NCBI GenBank assembly: GCA_030523505.1 | Contig: JAUNIK010000056.1 | Span: forward strand, 1-10,802 | Origin: Prevotellaceae bacterium | GTDB taxonomy: Bacteria; Bacteroidota; Bacteroidia; Bacteroidales; Bacteroidaceae | Length of the DNA stretch: 10,802 nucleotides | Direction of reading: 5' to 3' | In this document: one piece after another, positions 1-10,692 of the stretch | How positions within the stretch are numbered: the stretch's first letter is position 1 | How the letters are laid out: each line of letters opens with the position of its first letter | Notes under the pieces: generated by a model | Database searches by the model: none | What the model was told of the DNA's origin: nothing | The model's input: the letters and a program-made list of their open reading frames with translations, nothing else | Made by a program: the position numbers and the translations under genes

Positions 1-24
1 CATCGTTATCGTCATCGTTATCGT
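1..24. repeat. Two tandem copies of a 12-bp unit (CATCGTTATCGT)
   Basis: Bases 1-12 and 13-24 are identical. Each unit is two hexamers of the form nnTCGT. The repeat overlaps the stop codon (18-20) and the last codons of the sialidase-like gene, and it may continue beyond the window edge. It has the same structure as the repeat at 2704-2727. Confidence 0.8.
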
Positions 25-1193
25 TTAACGATTTCCTCCAGCTTCAGGTTCTTATACACCATCTGGTAGTTCAGCGGTTCTTCCTCGTAGTAGAATCCAA
101 TAGTACCATCTTTCTGGAGAGTCATTGTCGAGTAAGCCGAACCTTTATCGCTCACTTGATACTCGCCATCCCATTCTGATGCAAAGGCGAGTGGGGTAGA
201 GTAGTCCGCTTCGCTCTCAAGGAATTTGTAGTAGATGGTCACATTCGAACGCTTTGGTCCTGCCGGGATGCTCTGCAGTGCCACATGACATTTCTTACCA
301 TCCTTTTTCCAAGGCAGAATCATAATCTCACCGTCGGTAGGCGTTCCGCTATTGCTGATGCCACCAGGGCATTCGCGTGAGTCCACGCATTTGTCCCACT
401 GACCGTTGGCAGTCTTCTTGTTTGTGTAGTGGAAGATATTGAAATATCGTCCTCCGTCCTTACGCGAACTAATCAGCACATCTCCGTTAGGCAGTTCCTC
501 GCATTTCGGTTCGTCGCCCTTAGGCACACATACATTATATGAATCGCCGAGCACATTCCAGTTGCGTCCGAAGTCATCGCTGTAAAGCACGAAGTTACCC
601 TCGTGTGTGCAGAGAGCACCGTAGATACGGTAGTATTTGCCCACCTTCACTCTCGAACTCTGACAGATTCGTCCTGATCCCATGAACAACGCTCTCACCT
701 TGTCGTGCAACAGAGTATGATAGATATGCAACGTATGGTCCTTGAACTGTTTGTCCCACACCCATTCGCCGGTTTTCTTGTCGAGATAGGCGTGAATGGT
801 CACAAGGTGCTGTGGGTTTGCCAGCGACGAAGCCCAGTATGTCATGTTGCCTGCCACACAAGCCAACAGCAGTTCGTTGCTGTTTCTGTCGGCCACAAGA
901 CAAGCATCACCGAAACCTGTTGTCAGTCCTTCGCCAGTGCCGGTGAGCACTTCCGTCATCTCGCCCCATGTCTTACCATTGTCCTTGCTCACTCGCTGTT
1001 TGATATCCACACGACCGTAGCCGATGTCATTGAAACATGGTCTATAGTCGCTCAAGGCAATCACATCTCCGTTCTTCGCTGTTGCTATTGCAGGAATACG
1101 ATACGGAGGCTGTCCTTCGACAGTCTCAAAGAGTGTCGTCTGTGCCATCGCCGGCATTGCGATGGTCATGAGTAGTAACAGAAATTGTTTCAT
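18..1193 (-). CDS. Exported sialidase-like glycoside hydrolase (GH33-type beta-propeller)
   Basis: This 391-aa protein looks like an exo-alpha-sialidase, which removes terminal sialic acid from glycans. Residues 1-17 form a type I signal peptide ending in AMA before Gln18, and there is no lipobox, so a periplasmic or secreted location is likely. The catalytic set can be placed: Arg32 in YRIP, Asp56 in the NDIG stretch as acid/base, Glu232 or Glu233 before NGDV, Arg244 or Arg249, Arg315, and Tyr354 in AYSTM as nucleophile. Two Asp-boxes, SKDNGKTW (69-76) and SDDFGRNW (205-212), mark propeller blades. It is shorter than the two-domain Bacteroides sialidases because it lacks the N-terminal binding domain. 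It starts 84 bp after the GH16 gene with no clear promoter of its own, so cotranscription is likely. The fold assignment is firm. Sialic acid specificity is inferred, since related propellers cleave other keto-acid sugars or remain uncharacterised. Confidence 0.85.
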   Translation of the reverse strand: MKQFLLLLMTIAMPAMAQTTLFETVEGQPPYRIPAIATAKNGDVIALSDYRPCFNDIGYGRVDIKQRVSKDNGKTWGEMTEVLTGTGEGLTTGFGDACLVADRNSNELLLACVAGNMTYWASSLANPQHLVTIHAYLDKKTGEWVWDKQFKDHTLHIYHTLLHDKVRALFMGSGRICQSSRVKVGKYYRIYGALCTHEGNFVLYSDDFGRNWNVLGDSYNVCVPKGDEPKCEELPNGDVLISSRKDGGRYFNIFHYTNKKTANGQWDKCVDSRECPGGISNSGTPTDGEIMILPWKKDGKKCHVALQSIPAGPKRSNVTIYYKFLESEADYSTPLAFASEWDGEYQVSDKGSAYSTMTLQKDGTIGFYYEEEPLNYQMVYKNLKLEEIVKR

Positions 1194-1277: not shown

Positions 1278-2615
1278 TTATTTCTGGAACACGCGTACAT
1301 ATTCTACTTCCATTGTCACAGGAAGTTTCGACTCGTCAACGCCTTGTGAACCGCCCCAGTCGCCACCCCAAGCAAGGTTGAGGATGACATAGAATGGTGC
1401 ATCGTAAGGCCAGTCGCGAACACCAGTACCTGGGTTCTTGTAGTAGAGAGTCTTGTTGCCGTCAACATAGAACTGGAAATAGTCTGCTGTCCACTCCATA
1501 CCATATACATGGAACTCGCCCTCAGCGCCCTTGCAGTAAACCTCCTTGGTTACCTGAGTACCGTTAGAGTGTACATGACCGTCAGCGTGGAGTGATGATG
1601 ATACATAGTCCTTATGGTATCCTACCTCCTCCATGATGTCAATCTCACCGTCGTGTGGCCATGAGGTGAAGTGAACAGGCATCATCCAGAATGCAGGCCA
1701 TGTACCCTTGCCTGAAGGCAACTTGATCTTTGCTTCTACATAACCATACTGCCAGCCTGTGCCTACCTGAGCATATACACGACCAGAGTAAACCTTGTTG
1801 TCTTCCTTGAAGCAGTTAATCTTCAGTGTACCCTCTGTCACCTCTGTCACGCGTGCGCCCTTTGGCGACTTGGTGTTCACATAGTTCTGCAACTCGTGGT
1901 TCACCCAGCCTGAGTTCTTCACCTCGTGTGTCCAATCCTGACGGTTCAGGTCGATACCTTCCTGGCTGAACTCGTCGTTCCATACGAGATGGTAACCCTC
2001 AAGTGGGCATTGTATCTCTTCGTTGCCTTCCTGCTTTACCTCGATGGTCGCCTCTTCGTCGGCAGTCTTCACAGTAACCATACCTGTGCGGAAGTTGCCT
2101 TCATTGGCAGCAACAGTGATGACAACATCCTTGCCGCTCTTGCTGCATGTTATCCATGCCTCTGATGCAGTAGCCTCCCAGTTGCCGTTATACTCTACAG
2201 CAACATTCTTGTTGCCACCTTCTTTCTGGAAGTAGAGTGATGTCTCTGCTACCGAGAGTGGAGCAAGCTGCTTTACGCTCACCTCTTTGCGAGTCTGGCC
2301 GCTCTTGAATGTTACTGTTCCTGTGCGCTCAGCACTGGTGTTGGCTGTGAGCGCAACGGTTATTGTCGATGCAGAAGCATTTGGAGTAACCTTCATCCAG
2401 TCATCCGAACCGTAGGCTGTCCATTCCTTAGCGTCTGTTGTCACATTGATGGTGAATGTAGTAGCCTGAGCTGTTGCTGTGTAACTCTCTGGATTCAGTG
2501 TTACGTTTGTCTTGTCTGAATCTGGCTTTGGAGTAGGATCGTCGTTGTCTCCACTGCACGAAATCATAGGCAGTGCACATATGAGCAGAAGCATGAGATT
2601 AATAATCTTTTTCAT
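1278..2615 (-). CDS. GH16 endo-beta-glycanase lipoprotein with two BACON domains (laminarinase type)
   Basis: This 445-aa lipoprotein is a family GH16 endo-hydrolase. The signal peptide ends at a lipobox with Cys20, followed by acidic residues (SGDNDD), as in surface-exported Bacteroidetes lipoproteins. Two BACON beta-sandwich domains follow at about 37-117 and 119-197. The catalytic domain spans about 205-445 and carries GEIDIME at 323-329, with Glu324 as nucleophile, Asp326 as helper and Glu329 as acid/base. The ExDxxE spacing with the extra residue is the laminarinase/agarase type rather than the xyloglucanase type. GTWPAFW (304-310) and the C-terminal VEYVRVFQK strand are also typical. 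The likely substrate is a beta-1,3- or mixed-linkage glucan. However, GH16 subfamily 3 also contains the endo-O-glycanases of gut Bacteroidetes that cut mucin chains, and BACON domains have been proposed to bind mucin. The gene has its own promoter and leads a two-gene unit with the sialidase-like gene. Confidence 0.93.
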   Translation of the reverse strand: MKKIINLMLLLICALPMISCSGDNDDPTPKPDSDKTNVTLNPESYTATAQATTFTINVTTDAKEWTAYGSDDWMKVTPNASASTITVALTANTSAERTGTVTFKSGQTRKEVSVKQLAPLSVAETSLYFQKEGGNKNVAVEYNGNWEATASEAWITCSKSGKDVVITVAANEGNFRTGMVTVKTADEEATIEVKQEGNEEIQCPLEGYHLVWNDEFSQEGIDLNRQDWTHEVKNSGWVNHELQNYVNTKSPKGARVTEVTEGTLKINCFKEDNKVYSGRVYAQVGTGWQYGYVEAKIKLPSGKGTWPAFWMMPVHFTSWPHDGEIDIMEEVGYHKDYVSSSLHADGHVHSNGTQVTKEVYCKGAEGEFHVYGMEWTADYFQFYVDGNKTLYYKNPGTGVRDWPYDAPFYVILNLAWGGDWGGSQGVDESKLPVTMEVEYVRVFQK

Positions 2616-2811: not shown

Positions 2812-5268
2812 TTAGTTCTTCTTGAACACAATGTTCGAGATCTTCACATTTGTACCAGCAGGAGTACCACCAAAGTCGAAGAACAATGATAGTGCGTGAG
2901 CATTGTTCAAAGGCAACTTAACACCCTTCACAGTGTAAACATATGGAGTGTAAGCAGAAATCTTGTGCTGATCTGCGAAGAAGAAGTTGTTATCGTGCTT
3001 GTCAGCATCATCAGTCTCAGTGAGCTTGATGGTTACGCCAGGAGCGTCGTTGTCCATCTCAACAGTACATGAGAAGTTGTATGTATCATTCATATCAGCT
3101 GTCAGAGTTGTGTTGATAGGGAACTGGCCCTGCCACTGGCTGCCGCCCATACCCTCTGGGATAACGAGATCCCATGAGTTTCCTGAGTGGCTCCACTCTG
3201 GATCACCGATCTGGCCCCAGCCATTGTCAGCGAACCAAGGTGTTACAGAGATGAATGCGTCGCCTGCGTCAACAGCCTTCCAGAGGTTGTCAGCATCCTC
3301 ATAGTCCATGGAAACTGTCTCTTCGAAGTAGATCTTAGAAATCTTGACATTTGTGCCAGCAGGTGTACCACCGAAGTCGAAGAACAGTGACATAGCGTGA
3401 GCATCGTTCAATGGAAGCTCAACACCCTCTGCCTTGTAGATGAATGGCTCAAATGCCTTGATGTCATGACGATCTGCGAAGAAGAAGTTGTTGTCGTGCT
3501 TTTCAGCATCGTCAGTCTCAGTGAACTTGATTGTTACACCAGGACAGTCATTATCTGCCTCAACAACACAGTAGAAGTTGTACTTCTTACCCTTCTTTGC
3601 AGTAAGGGTTGTGTTGATAGGGAACTGGCCCTGCCACTGGCTGCCACCCATACCCTCAGGCATTGTTACAGACCATACACCATTCTCATGGCTCCACTCT
3701 GGATCACCGATCTGGCCCCAGCCATTGTCAGCAAACCAAGGAGTTACAGAGATGAATGCTGAACCGTCCTCAACAGCCTTCCAAAGGTTTGTGCCAGCGT
3801 TTGCATCCCAGTCCATTGTAGCATCCTCGCCACCAGCACCTGGTTCGTCAGAAGGAAGAACAGTACCGTCGTCATTAGCGTGATCCTTGATAACGATGTT
3901 CTTTACAGTAATAGTAGCGTCTGCTGGGTTACCACCGAAGTCGAAGAACAACTCACAGTCGCAGTCAGAAGAAAGCTCGTTAACGTCAGATACATAGAAT
4001 ACATAGTCCTCGTAAGCAGCAACTGGAACGCGCTCTACGAATACGAAGTTGTCGCCTGAGTTAACATCGGTCAACTTAACAGTTACGCCAGGGAGGTCAA
4101 CATTAGAAGAGATGATACATGACATATCGTACTTCTTGCTTGCTGAGAGGTGGAGAACACCATCGTTTGGCTTCAAAGGACACTGAGCCATCCACTGGTC
4201 AGTAGTTGCCTCTGGCAATGTGAATGTGTACTCGTTGCCGTTCTTAGCAAAACCTGGGTCAGCAATCTGGTTCCAATTAGGAGCATACCAGAAGTGTGTA
4301 GAGTAAGCGTCAGTGTCATCGACAGTCTTCCAGAGGTTGAACTCTGAATCATACTTGAATCCATTGAACTTAACAGCAGCAGCGCCAGAAGTAAGGATAT
4401 AGTGCCAAGCGATACCACCATTGTCAATAACGAGGTTGATCTCTGATGGAGTGATGCTCTCAACCTTATAGCGAGGCTCATTCCAGATATCATCGTTAGC
4501 GATGTATGGGAAGAAAGTATGCTCAGGGAATACGATGTAGAGATCATCGCCCTTTGTCTCGAACTTGTACTCAACTTCCTGCTCTGTTGCGTCAACGCAG
4601 AAGTCCTCGCCCTGAGGACCGCCGAGTGCTACAACGTCCTTGTTTACATAGATCTGACCAGATTCACCTGGGTGGAAATTGTACTTATAGTCAGAAGAGA
4701 ATGTCAGACGACAGTCGTAAACGCCGTAGCCTTCCTTCTCGTTAGCGCCTGCCGACCACCAGTTCAAACCGGTAGTAGCTGGCTCACCACAACCGAGGTG
4801 ACCTGCCTTGTCGTTGTCAATACGCCATTCCTTAGCAGCATTCTCCTTACCACCACAGAGCATTGTGAGATACTTGTCGTAGTTCACAATAGTGTTATCG
4901 ATAGTGAAAGTGCATGACTTGGTTCCATCGCTGAGACCATTGCGGTTCATAAGCTTGAACTCAACCTCATAGTCTCCCGCATTAGCAAAGATTCTCTGAA
5001 GGCCGTTAACAGTAGAGTAATTAACCTTCTCCTTCTCTGTTCCCTTGTTCTCATAGAAGATCCACACTGGCAGACAGCCCTTGCAGTCAGCTGGCAGAGT
5101 GAAGGTTACCTGATTGATGTTCTGATCAACAGTGATCACTGGTTCAATACCATCAAGTGTAGGAATGCCGTTAGGATCAGCACCTTCGAATGAATCAGGA
5201 GAACATGATGAAAGTATTGCCACAAAGGCCATCATCAGCACTCCGATATATGATTTAATTGATTTCAT
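2812..5268 (-). CDS. Multimodular surface glycan-binding lipoprotein (SusE/SGBP-like) with three CBM-like repeats
   Basis: This outer-membrane lipoprotein should hold glycan at the cell surface for the SusC/SusD pair. I chose the ATG at 5268 (818 aa), because the in-frame ATG at 5298 adds ten polar residues before a normal lysine-containing signal peptide. The lipobox LSSC places the acylated residue at Cys22. Next come a PKD-like beta-sandwich (about 42-125) and a domain with GHLGCG and NWWSAG motifs (about 131-300) that is common in SGBPs of this position. Three CBM4/9-like modules follow, starting with NLWK at 311, 494 and 661, and each ends in an LFFDFGG strand. Modules 2 and 3 are about 75% identical by hand count, while module 1 is diverged. 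There is no catalytic motif. The gene lies 79 bp after the susD-like gene and ends before a strong terminator. The binding role is secure from family and position, but the ligand is not known. Confidence 0.88.
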   Translation of the reverse strand: MKSIKSYIGVLMMAFVAILSSCSPDSFEGADPNGIPTLDGIEPVITVDQNINQVTFTLPADCKGCLPVWIFYENKGTEKEKVNYSTVNGLQRIFANAGDYEVEFKLMNRNGLSDGTKSCTFTIDNTIVNYDKYLTMLCGGKENAAKEWRIDNDKAGHLGCGEPATTGLNWWSAGANEKEGYGVYDCRLTFSSDYKYNFHPGESGQIYVNKDVVALGGPQGEDFCVDATEQEVEYKFETKGDDLYIVFPEHTFFPYIANDDIWNEPRYKVESITPSEINLVIDNGGIAWHYILTSGAAAVKFNGFKYDSEFNLWKTVDDTDAYSTHFWYAPNWNQIADPGFAKNGNEYTFTLPEATTDQWMAQCPLKPNDGVLHLSASKKYDMSCIISSNVDLPGVTVKLTDVNSGDNFVFVERVPVAAYEDYVFYVSDVNELSSDCDCELFFDFGGNPADATITVKNIVIKDHANDDGTVLPSDEPGAGGEDATMDWDANAGTNLWKAVEDGSAFISVTPWFADNGWGQIGDPEWSHENGVWSVTMPEGMGGSQWQGQFPINTTLTAKKGKKYNFYCVVEADNDCPGVTIKFTETDDAEKHDNNFFFADRHDIKAFEPFIYKAEGVELPLNDAHAMSLFFDFGGTPAGTNVKISKIYFEETVSMDYEDADNLWKAVDAGDAFISVTPWFADNGWGQIGDPEWSHSGNSWDLVIPEGMGGSQWQGQFPINTTLTADMNDTYNFSCTVEMDNDAPGVTIKLTETDDADKHDNNFFFADQHKISAYTPYVYTVKGVKLPLNNAHALSLFFDFGGTPAGTNVKISNIVFKKN
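2815..4338 (-). repeat. Three tandem CBM-like modules encoded in the SGBP gene
   Basis: Three module copies begin at nucleotides 4338, 3789 and 3288, reading down the minus strand, so the spacings are 549 and 501 bp. The second and third copies are nearly identical in DNA over long patches, for example around 3106-3160 against 3611-3660 and around 3188-3258 against 3689-3759. This points to a recent in-frame duplication. The first copy keeps the module's start (NLWK) and end (FFDFGG), but differs at the presumed binding face: WYAPNW instead of PWFADNGW. Confidence 0.9.
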
Positions 5269-5302
5269 ATTAATTAATTTATTATTATGAGTATTCACCT
5301 GG

Positions 5303-5347: not shown

Positions 5348-6889
5348 TTAATAGTTATTCTGTTTCAGAGCTGGGTCTGAGTCAAGCTCGGCCTGTGCGA
5401 TTGGTATGTATTTCTTGTTCTTAGTCCAGTTATTCTCACGATAACCTTCTGCAACGAGTTTGTTCTGTGCATTCACAGAAGACTCTGGAACGTCAACCAT
5501 ACGGACAAGATCCCAATAACGCTTACCCTCACCAACGAACTCAAGGTGACGCTCCTCGATAATATTATCGAGATTTGCAGTAATAGAACTAAGTCCTGCA
5601 CGTGAGCGTACTTCATCAAACCATGCCTGACCATTTCCAGAACCGGTACGTACAGCGAGTTCTGCAGCATAAAGCAGACATTCTGCGTAACGGTAGTAAC
5701 GATAGTTGTTGTTGAAGTTCAGGTTGTTGTCGTAAGCAGCGTCAGCATTGTTCTCAGCCTTTGGACGATACTTGTTGAGCCAGAGGTAGGTGTTCTCATA
5801 ACGTAGGTGATATGAGTTCTCTTCTGCAAGACCCTCAAGATGACGAAGATCCCAAACTGTAGCATCGCGGCGAACATCGCCTTCTGCATACATATCATAA
5901 GTTTCAACGCGCATTGGCAAGAAGCCCCAACCGTCACCCCATCTGTCAGAGAGAACGTAGTTGTTTGGCGAAATCAATGTTGGCATGATAGTACCACCGG
6001 TAGCAAGTGGAGAGTTCCAACCGCGGTCGTTACCACCATCCTCATAGTTGATTTCCCAGATAGACTCTGAACACCACTCACCAGACTCGTCCCAAAGATT
6101 AGCGAAATCTGGGTTGAGGGCATACTTACCACTGTTGATAATCTCTTTCATATAGTCAAGAGCCTTACCAAAGCGATCCTTGTCATTCTGGTATGTAACC
6201 ATTTCTGCATACATCATGTAAGCCATTGCCTGTGAAGCACGACCAGACTGAGAATCTTCCCAACGCATTGGGAGAACCTTTGAGTCAATGACAGCCTCAA
6301 GCTCACTGATGAGCTCTGCATAAACTTCGTCAGCAGTCTTCTGAGGTGCGCAGTAGTTTGTTGCAGCTGTAAGATTCTCAAGATAGAAAGGAATATTACC
6401 GAAATAATGCCACAACATATTATAATAGTACACGCGCATGCAACGTGCTTGCATCTCGTATGACTTCTTGTTCTCTGGAGTTACAGATGTGTCAACCCAT
6501 CCTAAGTAGCGAAGTAAGTCGTTGCAACGCTTGATACCAGAATAGTTTACAGTCCAGAGAGAAGAGAGGGTGTTGTTTTCGTCAGCTACGAAGTTTGACA
6601 ACATGTGCCAGTTCTTCATATCAGTCTTGGTTTCACCACCTACCCAGAAGTCATCGCCCATAATTTCAGCGTCGATATTGAGTGCATTATACTGGCCCAA
6701 TCCCCAGTCTGGCCAGTGGATTGGATCGTAGGCTGCATTAAGAGCCTCATTGATACGCTGGTCATTTACATAATATTCCTCGAGTGGATCACCGTCAGGT
6801 TTGGTAACCGTAAGGAAATCGTCACTACAAGAGGTTGTAAGCAACAGAGCTGCTGCAAACAAACCGAATGTCTTTATCGTTGTTTTCAT
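5348..6889 (-). CDS. SusD/RagB-family nutrient-binding outer membrane lipoprotein
   Basis: This 513-aa protein is the lid partner of the SusC transporter. It binds oligosaccharides at the cell surface and closes over the barrel during uptake. The signal peptide ends in a lipobox with Cys21, followed by SDDF, an acidic surface-export signal. The N-terminal part (about 22-220) is the helical SusD-like TPR region and includes the GIKRCNDLLRYL helix. The C-terminal part carries classic family blocks: YRYAECLLYAAELA, then ERHLEFVGEGKRYWDLVR, and an IPIAQAELDSDPALKQN ending. The length is normal for the family. It begins 116 bp after the susC-like gene, in a gap with a 30-bp tandem repeat and no clear promoter, so it is probably cotranscribed. 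It ends with two stop codons in a row. The family call is certain. The ligand cannot be read from the sequence. Confidence 0.97.
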   Translation of the reverse strand: MKTTIKTFGLFAAALLLTTSCSDDFLTVTKPDGDPLEEYYVNDQRINEALNAAYDPIHWPDWGLGQYNALNIDAEIMGDDFWVGGETKTDMKNWHMLSNFVADENNTLSSLWTVNYSGIKRCNDLLRYLGWVDTSVTPENKKSYEMQARCMRVYYYNMLWHYFGNIPFYLENLTAATNYCAPQKTADEVYAELISELEAVIDSKVLPMRWEDSQSGRASQAMAYMMYAEMVTYQNDKDRFGKALDYMKEIINSGKYALNPDFANLWDESGEWCSESIWEINYEDGGNDRGWNSPLATGGTIMPTLISPNNYVLSDRWGDGWGFLPMRVETYDMYAEGDVRRDATVWDLRHLEGLAEENSYHLRYENTYLWLNKYRPKAENNADAAYDNNLNFNNNYRYYRYAECLLYAAELAVRTGSGNGQAWFDEVRSRAGLSSITANLDNIIEERHLEFVGEGKRYWDLVRMVDVPESSVNAQNKLVAEGYRENNWTKNKKYIPIAQAELDSDPALKQNNY

Positions 6890-7005: not shown

Positions 7006-10000
7006 TTACTTTACGGTTACAATTGCGATACGGTTAGCGTGGTCTGTGTTAGCACCCTTTGCCTCAACGCGGTTAACATTGACGCCACGAGACTTCAAGT
7101 ATTCAGCAACAGCGTCAGCACGCTTCTGTGAGAGTGCCTTGTTAGCCTCTGCCTTACCCTCTGGTGAAGCGTAAGCCACAACATCAACAGTTGCGCCCTT
7201 CTCAATACCGTTGAGCTCTGTTGCGTCAGCAATCTTAGCAGAGTTTACAGCGAATGTAGCAACATAAGTCTTCTCGACAGCCTTTGTTGTCTCAACTTCC
7301 TTAGTTACAACCTTCTCTACTGGCTTCTCAACAACGCGGTCAACATACTCTACCTTTGGTGCAGAATAAGTAACATCCTTAGCCTTCTTGCCGCCCTTAC
7401 CACTGCTGAGTGTTACGTTAACACCAACTGTGATTGTACGAGCCTGAGGATAGATACCACGGTCAATACCAAGTGACTTTCCGTTAGAAGAGATTTCAGG
7501 ATCGAAACCATGATACTTTGTGAAAGTAAAGAGGTTCTCTGCCATACCATAGATACGGAAACGCTCAATACCAGCCTTCATTGTCCACTTGCGAGGGAAT
7601 GTATAACCAAGAGAGATGTTCTTCAAACGGAGATAAGAGCCATCATAAACATAGAGGTCACTTACAACCCAGTTCTCAGAGTCTCCATCCTTAAGGATAG
7701 GATACTTGTTCGAAGTACCCTCACCAGTCCAGCGTCCGAGCATCCATGAAGGGAAGTTACCTGCAGCAACGTCTGAACGATAAGTAGCATCAAATACATC
7801 AGCACCTGCTACACCCTGCCAGAACATATTGAAGTCGAAGCCCTTCCATTCTGCATTTACTGTGAAACCGAAGTTCCAGTCTGGAGTACCCTTACCAATC
7901 TTTGTGCGGTCGTCAGGAGTAATCTGTCCGTCACCGTTAACATCTACGAAACGTACATAACCAGGGAGAGCGTTTGGCTGAATCATACCGCCTTCGCTAT
8001 TTGTGTAGTTGTGAACTTCCTCCATGTTCTGGAAGATACCGTCTGTCTTATAACCATAGTAGAATGGGAAAGGCATGCCGTTCTCACCACGAGAAACGTT
8101 ACCACCGCTGATACCCTGTACACCGTCGTACTCTACGAAGCCTGCGCTGTTACCGAGGTTCTTCAGAGTATTCTTAATGTAAGATGCGTTACCCTTGAAA
8201 GAGTAGCGGAAGTCACCGATGTGACCCTTGTAGCCGAGTTCAAACTCACTACCCTTGTTCTCCATGTCACCAACATTACCAGCAGGCTTGTTCTCGCCGA
8301 GGTAGCTTGGTACAGGCATATCGATAATCATACCATTGGTCTTCTTGATGAAGTAGTCAACGGTGAAAGTGAGTGCCTGGTTGAAGAAACCGAAATCAAA
8401 ACCGAGGTCTGTCTGTTCTGACTCCTCCCAACGAAGGTCTGGGTTAGCAGTTGTTGAAGCCTTCGAACCAACATACTTCTGAGGGCTCTTACCGAAGAGA
8501 ACATTGCTACCCATAGTCGTCATTACAGTGTATTTGAAGTCACCGATAGCGTCGCTACCGTTCTTACCCCAAGAAGCACGGAACTTCAAGTTAGAAAGCC
8601 AATCGTGTGTGCTGTCCATGAATTTCTCGTTCATGATGTTCCAACCGATAGAAGCTGAAGGGAATACACCATACTTGTTGTTGATACCGAAACGTGATGA
8701 ACCATCACGACGGAGAGTAGCCTGAAGCATGTACTTCTCGTCATAGTTGTAAGATACACGACCGAAGAGTGAAGAGAGGCGATGTTCTACATTGAGACCA
8801 CCCCAACCGTTGAACTCAGCCTGCGGATTACCTGCAAGGGTACCATCATCATTGAGCTTCCAGATTACCTCGCTGTTTGTGTAGTTGAGGTTTGGCTTCT
8901 CTGGATTAACAATGTTCCAGCGGTTTACGCCAAGATAGTCGCTCTTGTTCTTCATAGCAGACTGACCAAGAACAACACCGATGGTGTGCTTGCCGAACTG
9001 CTTGTCATATGTAAGGGTGTTTTCAATCTGCCAGTTCAAGCCCTTGTTTGTGCCAGACTCAACAGAAGTGTGCTCGTCCTTATTGTTACCAGAGAGATAG
9101 CTCTTATAGATATTGTTAGCGTCATATCCCCAGAACGACATGTCGGCGCTGTATGTGAAGTGATACTTCAAATTGTCCCAAAGCTGGAGATCGAGAGACA
9201 GTTTTGGTACAAACTTGTGCGACCAGTTCTTTGTAGGATTTTTAGCAAGCATACCGAGAGGGTTGTTCATCTCACCATATGAACCATAACGGCTAGGAAT
9301 GGTGTAGTAGTTGCCGTTCTCATCCTTAGCTGGCTGATAGACTGTTGTACCCTTCTTTACAGGATTGCCCATTTCATCGTATACAAGATTGTAGTTATTG
9401 TCATACTTGTATTCCGACTCATAAGTCTTCCAGTACATATCTGCCTGTGTTGGGTCAGTGATTGTAACAGGGAGGATAGGAGAGAGGTAAAGAGCAGAAC
9501 CGAGGATAGAACCAAACTCTGAGTTGGTAGTTACGCCAGTGTTCTTAACGTTTGTATATGCGAGGTTGACTGTTACATCGAGTTTGTTGAGGAAGCTACG
9601 CTCACTTGTTGCATCAAGCACATTGTACATGTTGTTAGAACGGAGAGTCAAACGATCATAATTTGAATGACCATAGTTACCACCAACAATACCATCCTGT
9701 GAGAAATAGTTAGCAGAGAGGTAATAGTTCAGCTTCTCTGAAGCACCACTGATAGAAACGTCGTGGTTTACAACAGGTGCATTGTCATTGAATACAAGTG
9801 ACTGCCAGTCTGTACCAAAACCATTAATGGCACCGCCGCCTGCAGCATATTTGAGATTATATGGATCGCTATACAATGGGGCCAAACCACCATTGATGCG
9901 GCGCTCATTCTGCAGTACGGCATAATCAGTAGCACTGGTTACAGCACGATGCTTCCATGCAGTCTGCCAACCATAAGAACCGTTGTAGCTGATTGAAGCT

Positions 10001-10692
10001 GCGCCTTCCTTACCCTTCTTTGTGGTAACAAGAACAACACCATTGGCAGCACGAGCACCATAGATAGCACCAGAAGCAGCATCCTTGAGGACTTCAATAG
10101 ACTCAATATCAGAAGGACTCACGAAATCAATTCCACCTTCAATTGGCATACCGTCCACAATGTAGAGAGGGTCAGAGTTGTTGATTGTACCATTACCACG
10201 GATACGAACGCGACCACCATCACCAGGCTGACCTGAATTTGATGTTACGTTTACACCGGCAGCAAGACCTTTAAGTGCATTATCTACACGAACAGGAGTC
10301 TTGCCAGCGAGATCCTCTGCACTTACCTTTGCAATAGCAGCGGTAACAACGGACTTCTTCTGAACACCATAACCGATAACGACAACGTCATTAAGAGTCT
10401 GGCTGTCATCCCTAAGGATGATGTTCATGTTGCTACCTGCCTTCATGGTTAATGTTTCATAACCGATGTAAGAGATCTGCAACTGTGATCCCTGAGGCAC
10501 AGAAAACTGGAAGTTTCCATCGATGTCGGTAACAGTACCGACGCCGGTGTTTCCAACCAGAACAACAGAAGCGCCGATGATTGGTTCGCCAGTTGCATCC
10601 TTGACGTTACCATTCACCACCACATTCTGCGCATGAATTGCCATTGACACCATCAGCATCAACAGCATTGCAAGAAGTTTACTTCTTTTCAT
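7006..10692 (-). CDS. SusC/RagA-family TonB-dependent transporter fused to a C-terminal OmpA-like domain
   Basis: This 1228-aa outer membrane protein imports oligosaccharides with TonB energy. The signal peptide ends in IHA before Gln22. A carboxypeptidase-regulatory-like beta-sandwich follows (about 23-94), then a TonB-box region around DVVVIGYG (102-109), a plug (about 110-225) with the SusC signature LKDAASGAIYGARAANG, and a 22-strand-type barrel ending near Leu1095 with TITVGVNVTL. Most SusC proteins stop there. This one continues with a charged Val/Glu/Lys linker (about 1096-1143) and an OmpA-like domain (about 1144-1228) containing AYASPEGK and ALSQKRAD. The tail should lie in the periplasm, perhaps touching peptidoglycan or the linker region of partners. 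There is no N-terminal STN/sigma-signalling domain, so control by an HTCS or SusR-type regulator outside the window is more likely than an ECF/anti-sigma loop. The reading frame is unbroken across the fusion. Confidence 0.96.
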   Translation of the reverse strand: MKRSKLLAMLLMLMVSMAIHAQNVVVNGNVKDATGEPIIGASVVLVGNTGVGTVTDIDGNFQFSVPQGSQLQISYIGYETLTMKAGSNMNIILRDDSQTLNDVVVIGYGVQKKSVVTAAIAKVSAEDLAGKTPVRVDNALKGLAAGVNVTSNSGQPGDGGRVRIRGNGTINNSDPLYIVDGMPIEGGIDFVSPSDIESIEVLKDAASGAIYGARAANGVVLVTTKKGKEGAASISYNGSYGWQTAWKHRAVTSATDYAVLQNERRINGGLAPLYSDPYNLKYAAGGGAINGFGTDWQSLVFNDNAPVVNHDVSISGASEKLNYYLSANYFSQDGIVGGNYGHSNYDRLTLRSNNMYNVLDATSERSFLNKLDVTVNLAYTNVKNTGVTTNSEFGSILGSALYLSPILPVTITDPTQADMYWKTYESEYKYDNNYNLVYDEMGNPVKKGTTVYQPAKDENGNYYTIPSRYGSYGEMNNPLGMLAKNPTKNWSHKFVPKLSLDLQLWDNLKYHFTYSADMSFWGYDANNIYKSYLSGNNKDEHTSVESGTNKGLNWQIENTLTYDKQFGKHTIGVVLGQSAMKNKSDYLGVNRWNIVNPEKPNLNYTNSEVIWKLNDDGTLAGNPQAEFNGWGGLNVEHRLSSLFGRVSYNYDEKYMLQATLRRDGSSRFGINNKYGVFPSASIGWNIMNEKFMDSTHDWLSNLKFRASWGKNGSDAIGDFKYTVMTTMGSNVLFGKSPQKYVGSKASTTANPDLRWEESEQTDLGFDFGFFNQALTFTVDYFIKKTNGMIIDMPVPSYLGENKPAGNVGDMENKGSEFELGYKGHIGDFRYSFKGNASYIKNTLKNLGNSAGFVEYDGVQGISGGNVSRGENGMPFPFYYGYKTDGIFQNMEEVHNYTNSEGGMIQPNALPGYVRFVDVNGDGQITPDDRTKIGKGTPDWNFGFTVNAEWKGFDFNMFWQGVAGADVFDATYRSDVAAGNFPSWMLGRWTGEGTSNKYPILKDGDSENWVVSDLYVYDGSYLRLKNISLGYTFPRKWTMKAGIERFRIYGMAENLFTFTKYHGFDPEISSNGKSLGIDRGIYPQARTITVGVNVTLSSGKGGKKAKDVTYSAPKVEYVDRVVEKPVEKVVTKEVETTKAVEKTYVATFAVNSAKIADATELNGIEKGATVDVVAYASPEGKAEANKALSQKRADAVAEYLKSRGVNVNRVEAKGANTDHANRIAIVTVK

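What the first reader, a model, noticed from the sequence alone, without database searches (positions are those of the whole stretch)
7006..7410. SusC transporter carries an OmpA-like periplasmic domain after its barrel
The barrel ends in the usual SusC way near residue 1095 (TVGVNVTL), but the frame continues for 133 residues: a charged Val/Glu/Lys linker, then an OmpA-like domain. SusC proteins normally end at the last strand. A tail on that strand would face the periplasm and could tether the transporter to the cell wall, fix its position in the membrane, or stabilise SusC/SusD complexes. The linker and domain also look like the C-terminus of a Prevotella-type OmpA, so the fusion may have arisen by recombination with an ompA gene. 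I do not know whether this exact fusion has been described.
Basis: partly seen in the sequence, partly recalled or inferred. Interest (0 to 1): 0.78.

Follow-up and report, generated by a model that had tools for sequence, protein, structure and literature searches.

The report
Sugar transporter with swappable periplasmic tail
A gut-type Prevotella sugar transporter (SusC) carries an extra folded tail like the wall-binding end of the protein OmpA, and relatives show this tail being gained and lost on many unrelated SusC transporters, which may be a way of fixing these transporters inside the cell envelope.

Summary
Window 7006-10692 (minus strand) encodes a 1228-residue SusC. The SusC model ends at residue 1095 and 133 residues follow: a charged linker and an OmpA-like domain (PF00691, 35.5 bits, cut-off 27.2). 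It is neither unique nor routine: a tail-guided search found 1521 proteins (the 120 listed all carry TonB-receptor domains), yet only 17 of 299 genus genomes have it in a frame over 900 aa, and the 119 other barrel relatives listed lack it. The news is the pattern. On a tree of 91 barrels the tail switches at least 21 times. In 11 of 11 chosen comparisons (8 different tail-less proteins) the tail-less relative stops at the last strand. For 11 of 15 tails in multi-tail genomes the nearest tail on an unrelated barrel is from the same genome. So the tail behaves as a swappable module; tail omega is 0.05-0.15 in nine ortholog pairs, all of one SusC family. The fold matches wall-binding OmpA domains, but of three ligand side chains Asn and Arg are kept and Asp is Ser. 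My best reading is an in-cis RmpM. Binding is untested.

The parts
7408..10692 (-). SusC/RagA TonB-dependent transporter: N-terminal part, CarbopepD_reg_2, plug and barrel, residues 1-1095
   Evidence: TIGR04056 910 bits to residue 1095; Plug 4.5e-19; CarbopepD_reg_2 1e-15
7270..7407 (-). charged Val/Glu/Lys/Pro linker, residues 1096-1141 (46 residues)
   Evidence: sequence; the part modelled (from residue 1115) is without regular structure and mostly of low confidence
7009..7269 (-). compact OmpA-like domain, residues 1142-1228, Ser1176/Asn1184/Arg1191 at the peptidoglycan-ligand positions
7006..7008 (-). stop codon
5348..6889 (-). SusD partner
   Evidence: PF07980 5.7e-25, PF14322 1.6e-14

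Best explanation
The tail is a modular periplasmic cap: a linker of about 46 residues plus a compact OmpA-like domain placed directly after the last barrel strand of SusC. It spreads among unrelated susC genes by recombination, often within one genome, and is kept by selection. Most likely it works like RmpM in Neisseria, but in cis: it contacts the peptidoglycan (or a partner there) and so holds SusCD complexes within reach of TonB and of each other. Shown here: the fusion, the predicted fold, repeated change of tail state on the barrel tree, clustering of many tails by genome, purifying selection on the tail in one SusC family. Inferred: direction of movement, periplasmic placement, wall contact, any effect on transport.
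For: Domain and fold. At least 21 changes of tail state on the barrel tree, 15 forced by starred branches. Tail-less relatives stop at the last strand in 11 of 11 chosen comparisons, 8 different tail-less proteins, up to 92% identity. For 11 of 15 tails in multi-tail genomes the nearest tail on an unrelated or unknown barrel is from the same genome (two of these tied or nearly so); label shuffles average 0.8, maximum 6 in 2000. Tail omega 0.052-0.153 in 9 of 9 ortholog pairs, all from the 1120-aa SusC family. Domain pS between paralogs 0.27-0.46 in six pairs of other genomes and 0.38 for window/C79, against 0.58-0.73 in their barrels. Two susC contigs of this genome share an exact 55-nt end inside the linker, as expected if an identical tail broke the assembly (inference). 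Ser, Asn and Arg at the ligand positions are invariant in 38 aligned rows. RmpM is reported in complexes with TonB-dependent transporters, and its mutation to reduce growth on lactoferrin iron (passages of PMC8497027).
Against: The ligand Asp is Ser in every tail seen; Asp and Arg were each critical for diaminopimelate binding in A. baumannii OmpA (passages of PMC6572160). In E. coli, removing the wall-binding domain of OmpA did not raise its mobility (abstract of PMC3637615). Mean tail identity within genomes equals that between genomes (69.9 and 69.9%, 16 and 333 pairs). The window's own tail is less clear-cut than others: C79 ties with a tail from another genome, window/C171 are only 58% alike with domain dS 1.00. 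282 of 299 genus genomes showed no such frame, many of them incomplete.
Confidence: 0.55

Rival explanations
1. The tail is a docking or oligomerisation domain that does not bind peptidoglycan: the Asp-to-Ser change ended wall binding and the conserved face now binds another periplasmic protein, or a second SusC tail in the SusC2D2 dimer.
For: Ser in 120 of 120 listed proteins and in 7 of 7 genus porins examined (6 distinct sequences), while S-P-E-G, Asn and Arg are invariant in 38 rows.
Against: Two of three ligand side chains and the fold are kept; in PorE part of the contacts are main-chain amides, which Ser could keep (passages of PMC7192894).
Confidence: 0.25
2. The tail is mainly a recombination handle or near-neutral passenger: a conserved 3' end that lets susC genes exchange barrels, with no own role in the envelope.
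For: Many switches; near-identical tails on different barrels (P0001/P0002: barrel 64%, domain 98%).
Against: Omega 0.05-0.15 (one family) and 16 invariant columns over 38 rows imply selection on the protein. No recombinase was searched for.
Confidence: 0.1
3. Assembly or binning artefact joining a susC to an ompA end.
For: The genome is a 662-contig assembly, 80% complete; contigs C171, C100 and C169 begin or end inside a tail or linker.
Against: 42 of 43 strong loci in public assemblies have barrel and tail in one frame, two strains among them; one protein cluster holds 1421 member sequences.
Confidence: 0.03

Closest known systems
SusC/RagA TonB-dependent transporters (TIGR04056)
   Same: Plug, barrel, CarbopepD_reg_2 and adjacent SusD
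   Different: Tail-less members compared here stop at the last strand; this one has 133 extra residues
OmpA-type porins of the genus (frames of 355-436 aa) with the same C-terminal domain type
   Same: Compact domain at the very C-terminus, Ser in place of Asp; V/E/K-rich linker in the one read in full
   Different: A small protein instead of a SusC barrel; 36-49% identity to this tail
RmpM (class 4 protein) of Neisseria
   Different: Separate protein acting in trans; here fused in cis, with a changed ligand site
PorE C-terminal domain, T9SS
   Same: OmpA-like fold; Asn and Arg ligands at the same +8/+7 spacing
   Different: Keeps Asp576; lipoprotein of the secretion system
Other TonB-receptor-like protein with an OmpA-like tail (C551 of this genome; L172), called Oar-like here
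   Same: SPEG-type tail at the C-terminus
   Different: PF00691 is the only Pfam match in the C551 piece; coiled linker, divergent tail; the name Oar-like is recalled, from no call

Membership tests
SusC/RagA transporter | TIGR04056 above curated cut-off with plug and barrel | tested here: met
   910 bits against 368; PF07715 4.5e-19
SusC/RagA transporter | adjacent susD | tested here: met
   5348-6889, PF07980
SusC/RagA transporter | ends at the last barrel strand | tested here: not met
   133 residues beyond the end of P0121; an addition, not a loss
SusC/RagA transporter | TonB-driven glycan import | not testable with these tools
   none
OmpA-like domain (PF00691) | profile above gathering score | tested here: met
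   35.5 bits against 27.2; 38 of 38 rows (37 SusC tails, 1 porin piece) match PF00691 at E 1e-3 or better
OmpA-like domain (PF00691) | beta-alpha-beta-alpha-beta-beta fold | tested here: met
peptidoglycan-binding OmpA domain | Asp, Asn and Arg ligand side chains | tested here: not met
   Ser, Asn, Arg at the PorE positions in 38 of 38 rows; Ser in 120 of 120 listed proteins
peptidoglycan-binding OmpA domain | binds peptidoglycan | not testable with these tools
   none
RmpM-like accessory protein | separate OmpA-like protein associated with TonB-dependent transporters | tested here: not met
   here the domain is fused in cis; similarity of role is inference

The most novel reading that the evidence does not exclude
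Prevotellaceae use a transferable periplasmic cap that is copied between unrelated nutrient transporters within a genome, giving whichever SusC carries it a common anchoring or docking behaviour through a ligand site changed from the classical wall-binding one.
Probability: 0.4. Interest if true: 0.75.

Novelty: new variant of a known kind. Interest (0 to 1): 0.6.

Why it matters
How SusCD complexes are placed relative to the wall and to TonB is, as far as I recall, little understood. Natural pairs of closely related SusC barrels with and without an OmpA-like domain (92%, 83% and 80% identical) make the question directly testable, and the tail appears as a mobile trait of glycan importers in rumen and gut Prevotella and in Segatella copri.

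Tried and rejected
Gene conversion making all tails of one genome alike: not general. Window/C79 domain 74%, window/C171 58%, UBA1726 pairs 47-90%; within- and between-genome means are equal. A single fusion followed by vertical descent on the barrel: the tree needs at least 21 changes, but gains and losses cannot be told apart, tail-bearing rows were chosen by tail similarity, C100 was labelled tailed by its linker alone, and frames under 925 aa and C169 were dropped. A decayed tail downstream of tail-less genes: none convincing in 12 loci; weak hits in 4 of 12 (the hits printed: 11-33 residues, E 0.006-0.08), and for 4 of 12 only 100-190 nt could be examined. Domain identity above barrel identity in 656 of 666 pairs of 37 proteins is biased because hits were chosen by the tail, so I do not rest on it alone. 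Whether SusC tails are one clade against porin tails is unresolved: 2 changes, 1 not excluded; L071/C171 and L072 are divergent types. A solved structure of the Ser-type domain was not identified; the sequence of 9uu2 at that position was not seen. Alignment A2 was spoiled by a full-length row and dropped. Papers: ten searches; eight of them (all but 23 and 73) looked for the fusion, and none of the titles or abstract starts listed describes a SusC with an OmpA-like tail. The lists were capped (25 of 68, 15 of 196, 12 of 228, 15 of 72, 15 of 15, 12 of 135, 2 of 2, 15 of 51), and the term susc also matched words such as susceptibility. I saw passages of PMC7192894, PMC6572160, PMC8497027 and PMC2797634 and the abstract and outline of PMC3637615; otherwise listings only. 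Subscription papers and preprints are not held.

Full report

Not unique, not routine. A search guided by residues 1085-1228 found 1521 proteins at E 1e-3 or better among candidates of 0.55 to 1.75 times this length, so small porins could not appear. The 120 listed, the window's own included, all carry PF00691 together with TonB-receptor domains, and all end 56-58 residues after the start of an A-Y-A-S-P-E-G-type motif. A search guided by the barrel found 7728 proteins; the 119 others listed are 69-80% identical and none has PF00691. In 299 genomes of the genus, own included, 17 have a tail match (E 1e-18) in a frame over 900 aa, and one more (G109) in a 466-aa frame; most other matches are frames of about 350-440 aa, the OmpA-type porins. 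In 301 genomes of the family, 2 (own and G591) have it in a frame over 900 aa. In the window's own genome the tail or its linker is on C445, C79, C171, C100 and C169, plus a different TonB-receptor-like protein on C551. In five genomes chosen because they have the tail, there are 12 tailed SusC frames (one cut short) against 180 matches to the SusC model, fragments included. Record titles of the 43 strong loci name Prevotella, Prevotellaceae, Bacteroidaceae or Bacteroidales bins, many from rumen, omasum or faeces, and the strains Segatella copri iA622 and Hoylesella loescheii An865.

The tail switches on and off. A tree of 91 barrels with tails removed (45 tailed, 46 not; 89 different rows; quick method, LG+G4, several long branches flagged) needs at least 21 changes of state, 15 of them forced by starred branches; shuffled labels average 30.7. 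Tails are thus clustered on the barrel tree but far from a single origin. In 11 of 11 comparisons that I chose (8 different tail-less proteins) the tail-less protein ends at the last strand and the tailed one goes on for 129-138 residues; identities run from 48 to 92%, the closest pair being P0026/L144. Nothing convincing resembling a tail lies behind the stop of 12 tail-less genes, although only 100-190 nt were available for four.

Tails often follow genomes. Among 45 tails, 15 belong to genomes with several. For 11 of the 15 the most similar tail on an unrelated barrel (under 45% identity, or barrel unknown) is from the same genome; two of the 11, the window among them, are tied or nearly tied with a tail from another genome. 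C79, C171, L071 and L072 do not follow. Label shuffles average 0.8 and never exceed 6 in 2000. Examples are UBA1726 L030/L047 (barrels 25%, domains 90%), UBA1746 L042/L045 (25%, 89%) and UBA1716 L036/L051 (32%, 86%). The average does not show it: 69.9% within against 69.9% between genomes (16 and 333 pairs), because UBA1726 and the window's genome also hold divergent tail types. In the tail tree the three tails of Horse_feces95 group (97/95), as do window and P0002 (100/99, genome of P0002 unknown); UBA1726 L030/L047, UBA1746 L042/L045 and UBA1716 L036/L051 group at 92-95/72-77, while L064, L071, L072, C79 and C171 do not group with their genome mates; the tree rests on only 90 columns. Domain pS between paralogs is 0.27-0.46 in six pairs of other genomes, 0.38 for window/C79 and 0.55 for window/C171; the barrel ends of the first seven pairs have pS 0.58-0.73, on alignments of low identity. 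Contigs C100 and C169 of the window's genome carry two different susC genes and both stop inside the linker with an exact shared run of 55 nt; I read this as an assembly break at a tail identical in both (inference).

Function. Nine ortholog pairs give tail omega 0.052-0.153, similar to their barrels (one barrel value is undefined because dS is saturated). All nine are from the 1120-aa SusC family that includes the Segatella copri gene, so selection is shown there and extended to the window's tail by inference from the invariant columns. In PorE the side chains of Asp576, Asn584 and Arg591 hold the peptidoglycan stem peptide, and main-chain amides also take part (passages of PMC7192894). At the same spacing the tail has Ser1176, Asn1184 and Arg1191; Ser, Asn and Arg are invariant in 38 rows, which are the window, 36 of the 43 strong loci and one porin. 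Asp and Arg changes were each reported as critical for diaminopimelate binding in A. baumannii OmpA (passages of PMC6572160). Wall binding is thus possible but altered. All 7 genus porins examined share the Ser (6 distinct sequences). Of 13 OmpA-domain loci of the own genome put to a motif pattern, 7 matched it: 2 with Asp (L001, L003) and 5 with Ser, among them the three SusC tails. The change therefore belongs to a domain type rather than to this fusion. [quoted passage not shown] In Caulobacter, Pal in the BAM complex was proposed to keep the membranes close (passages of PMC2797634). I therefore propose a cis version of such a holder: the linker, 46 residues, lets the domain reach the wall and keeps SusCD near TonB. 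This step is inference. Removing the wall-binding domain of E. coli OmpA did not change its mobility (abstract of PMC3637615), so immobilisation alone may not be the point.

Origin. Whether all SusC tails form one clade is unresolved.

Verdict. A real, modular fusion in Prevotellaceae, under selection where this could be measured, and not seen in the capped listings of eight paper searches of an open-access library. Both parts are known kinds; the combination and its mobility are the news.

Noticed in passing
G000 contigs C100 and C169 (L108, L124): Two susC paralogs whose contigs both end inside the linker with an exact shared 55-nt run, suggesting a collapsed identical tail.
   Followed up: partly
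G000:C551 (L016), L172: TonB-receptor-like protein with a divergent OmpA-like SPEG tail and coiled linker, followed in both genomes by a lipoprotein-like gene.
   Followed up: partly
window 2812-5298, minus strand: 828-aa lipoprotein-like protein after SusD with a tandem duplication (spacing 501 nt, 78-90% nucleotide identity in three blocks) and no Pfam match.
   Followed up: partly
window 1278-2615 and 18-1193, minus strand: GH16 enzyme with BACON domains, and a BNR/neuraminidase-like protein below the NCBIfam cut-off; a likely glycan-use locus.
   Followed up: no
L072 (UBA1726): A SusC whose linker start equals that of C100 over 28 residues but whose tail is divergent and partly porin-like, a possible separate fusion or tail replacement.
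   Followed up: partly
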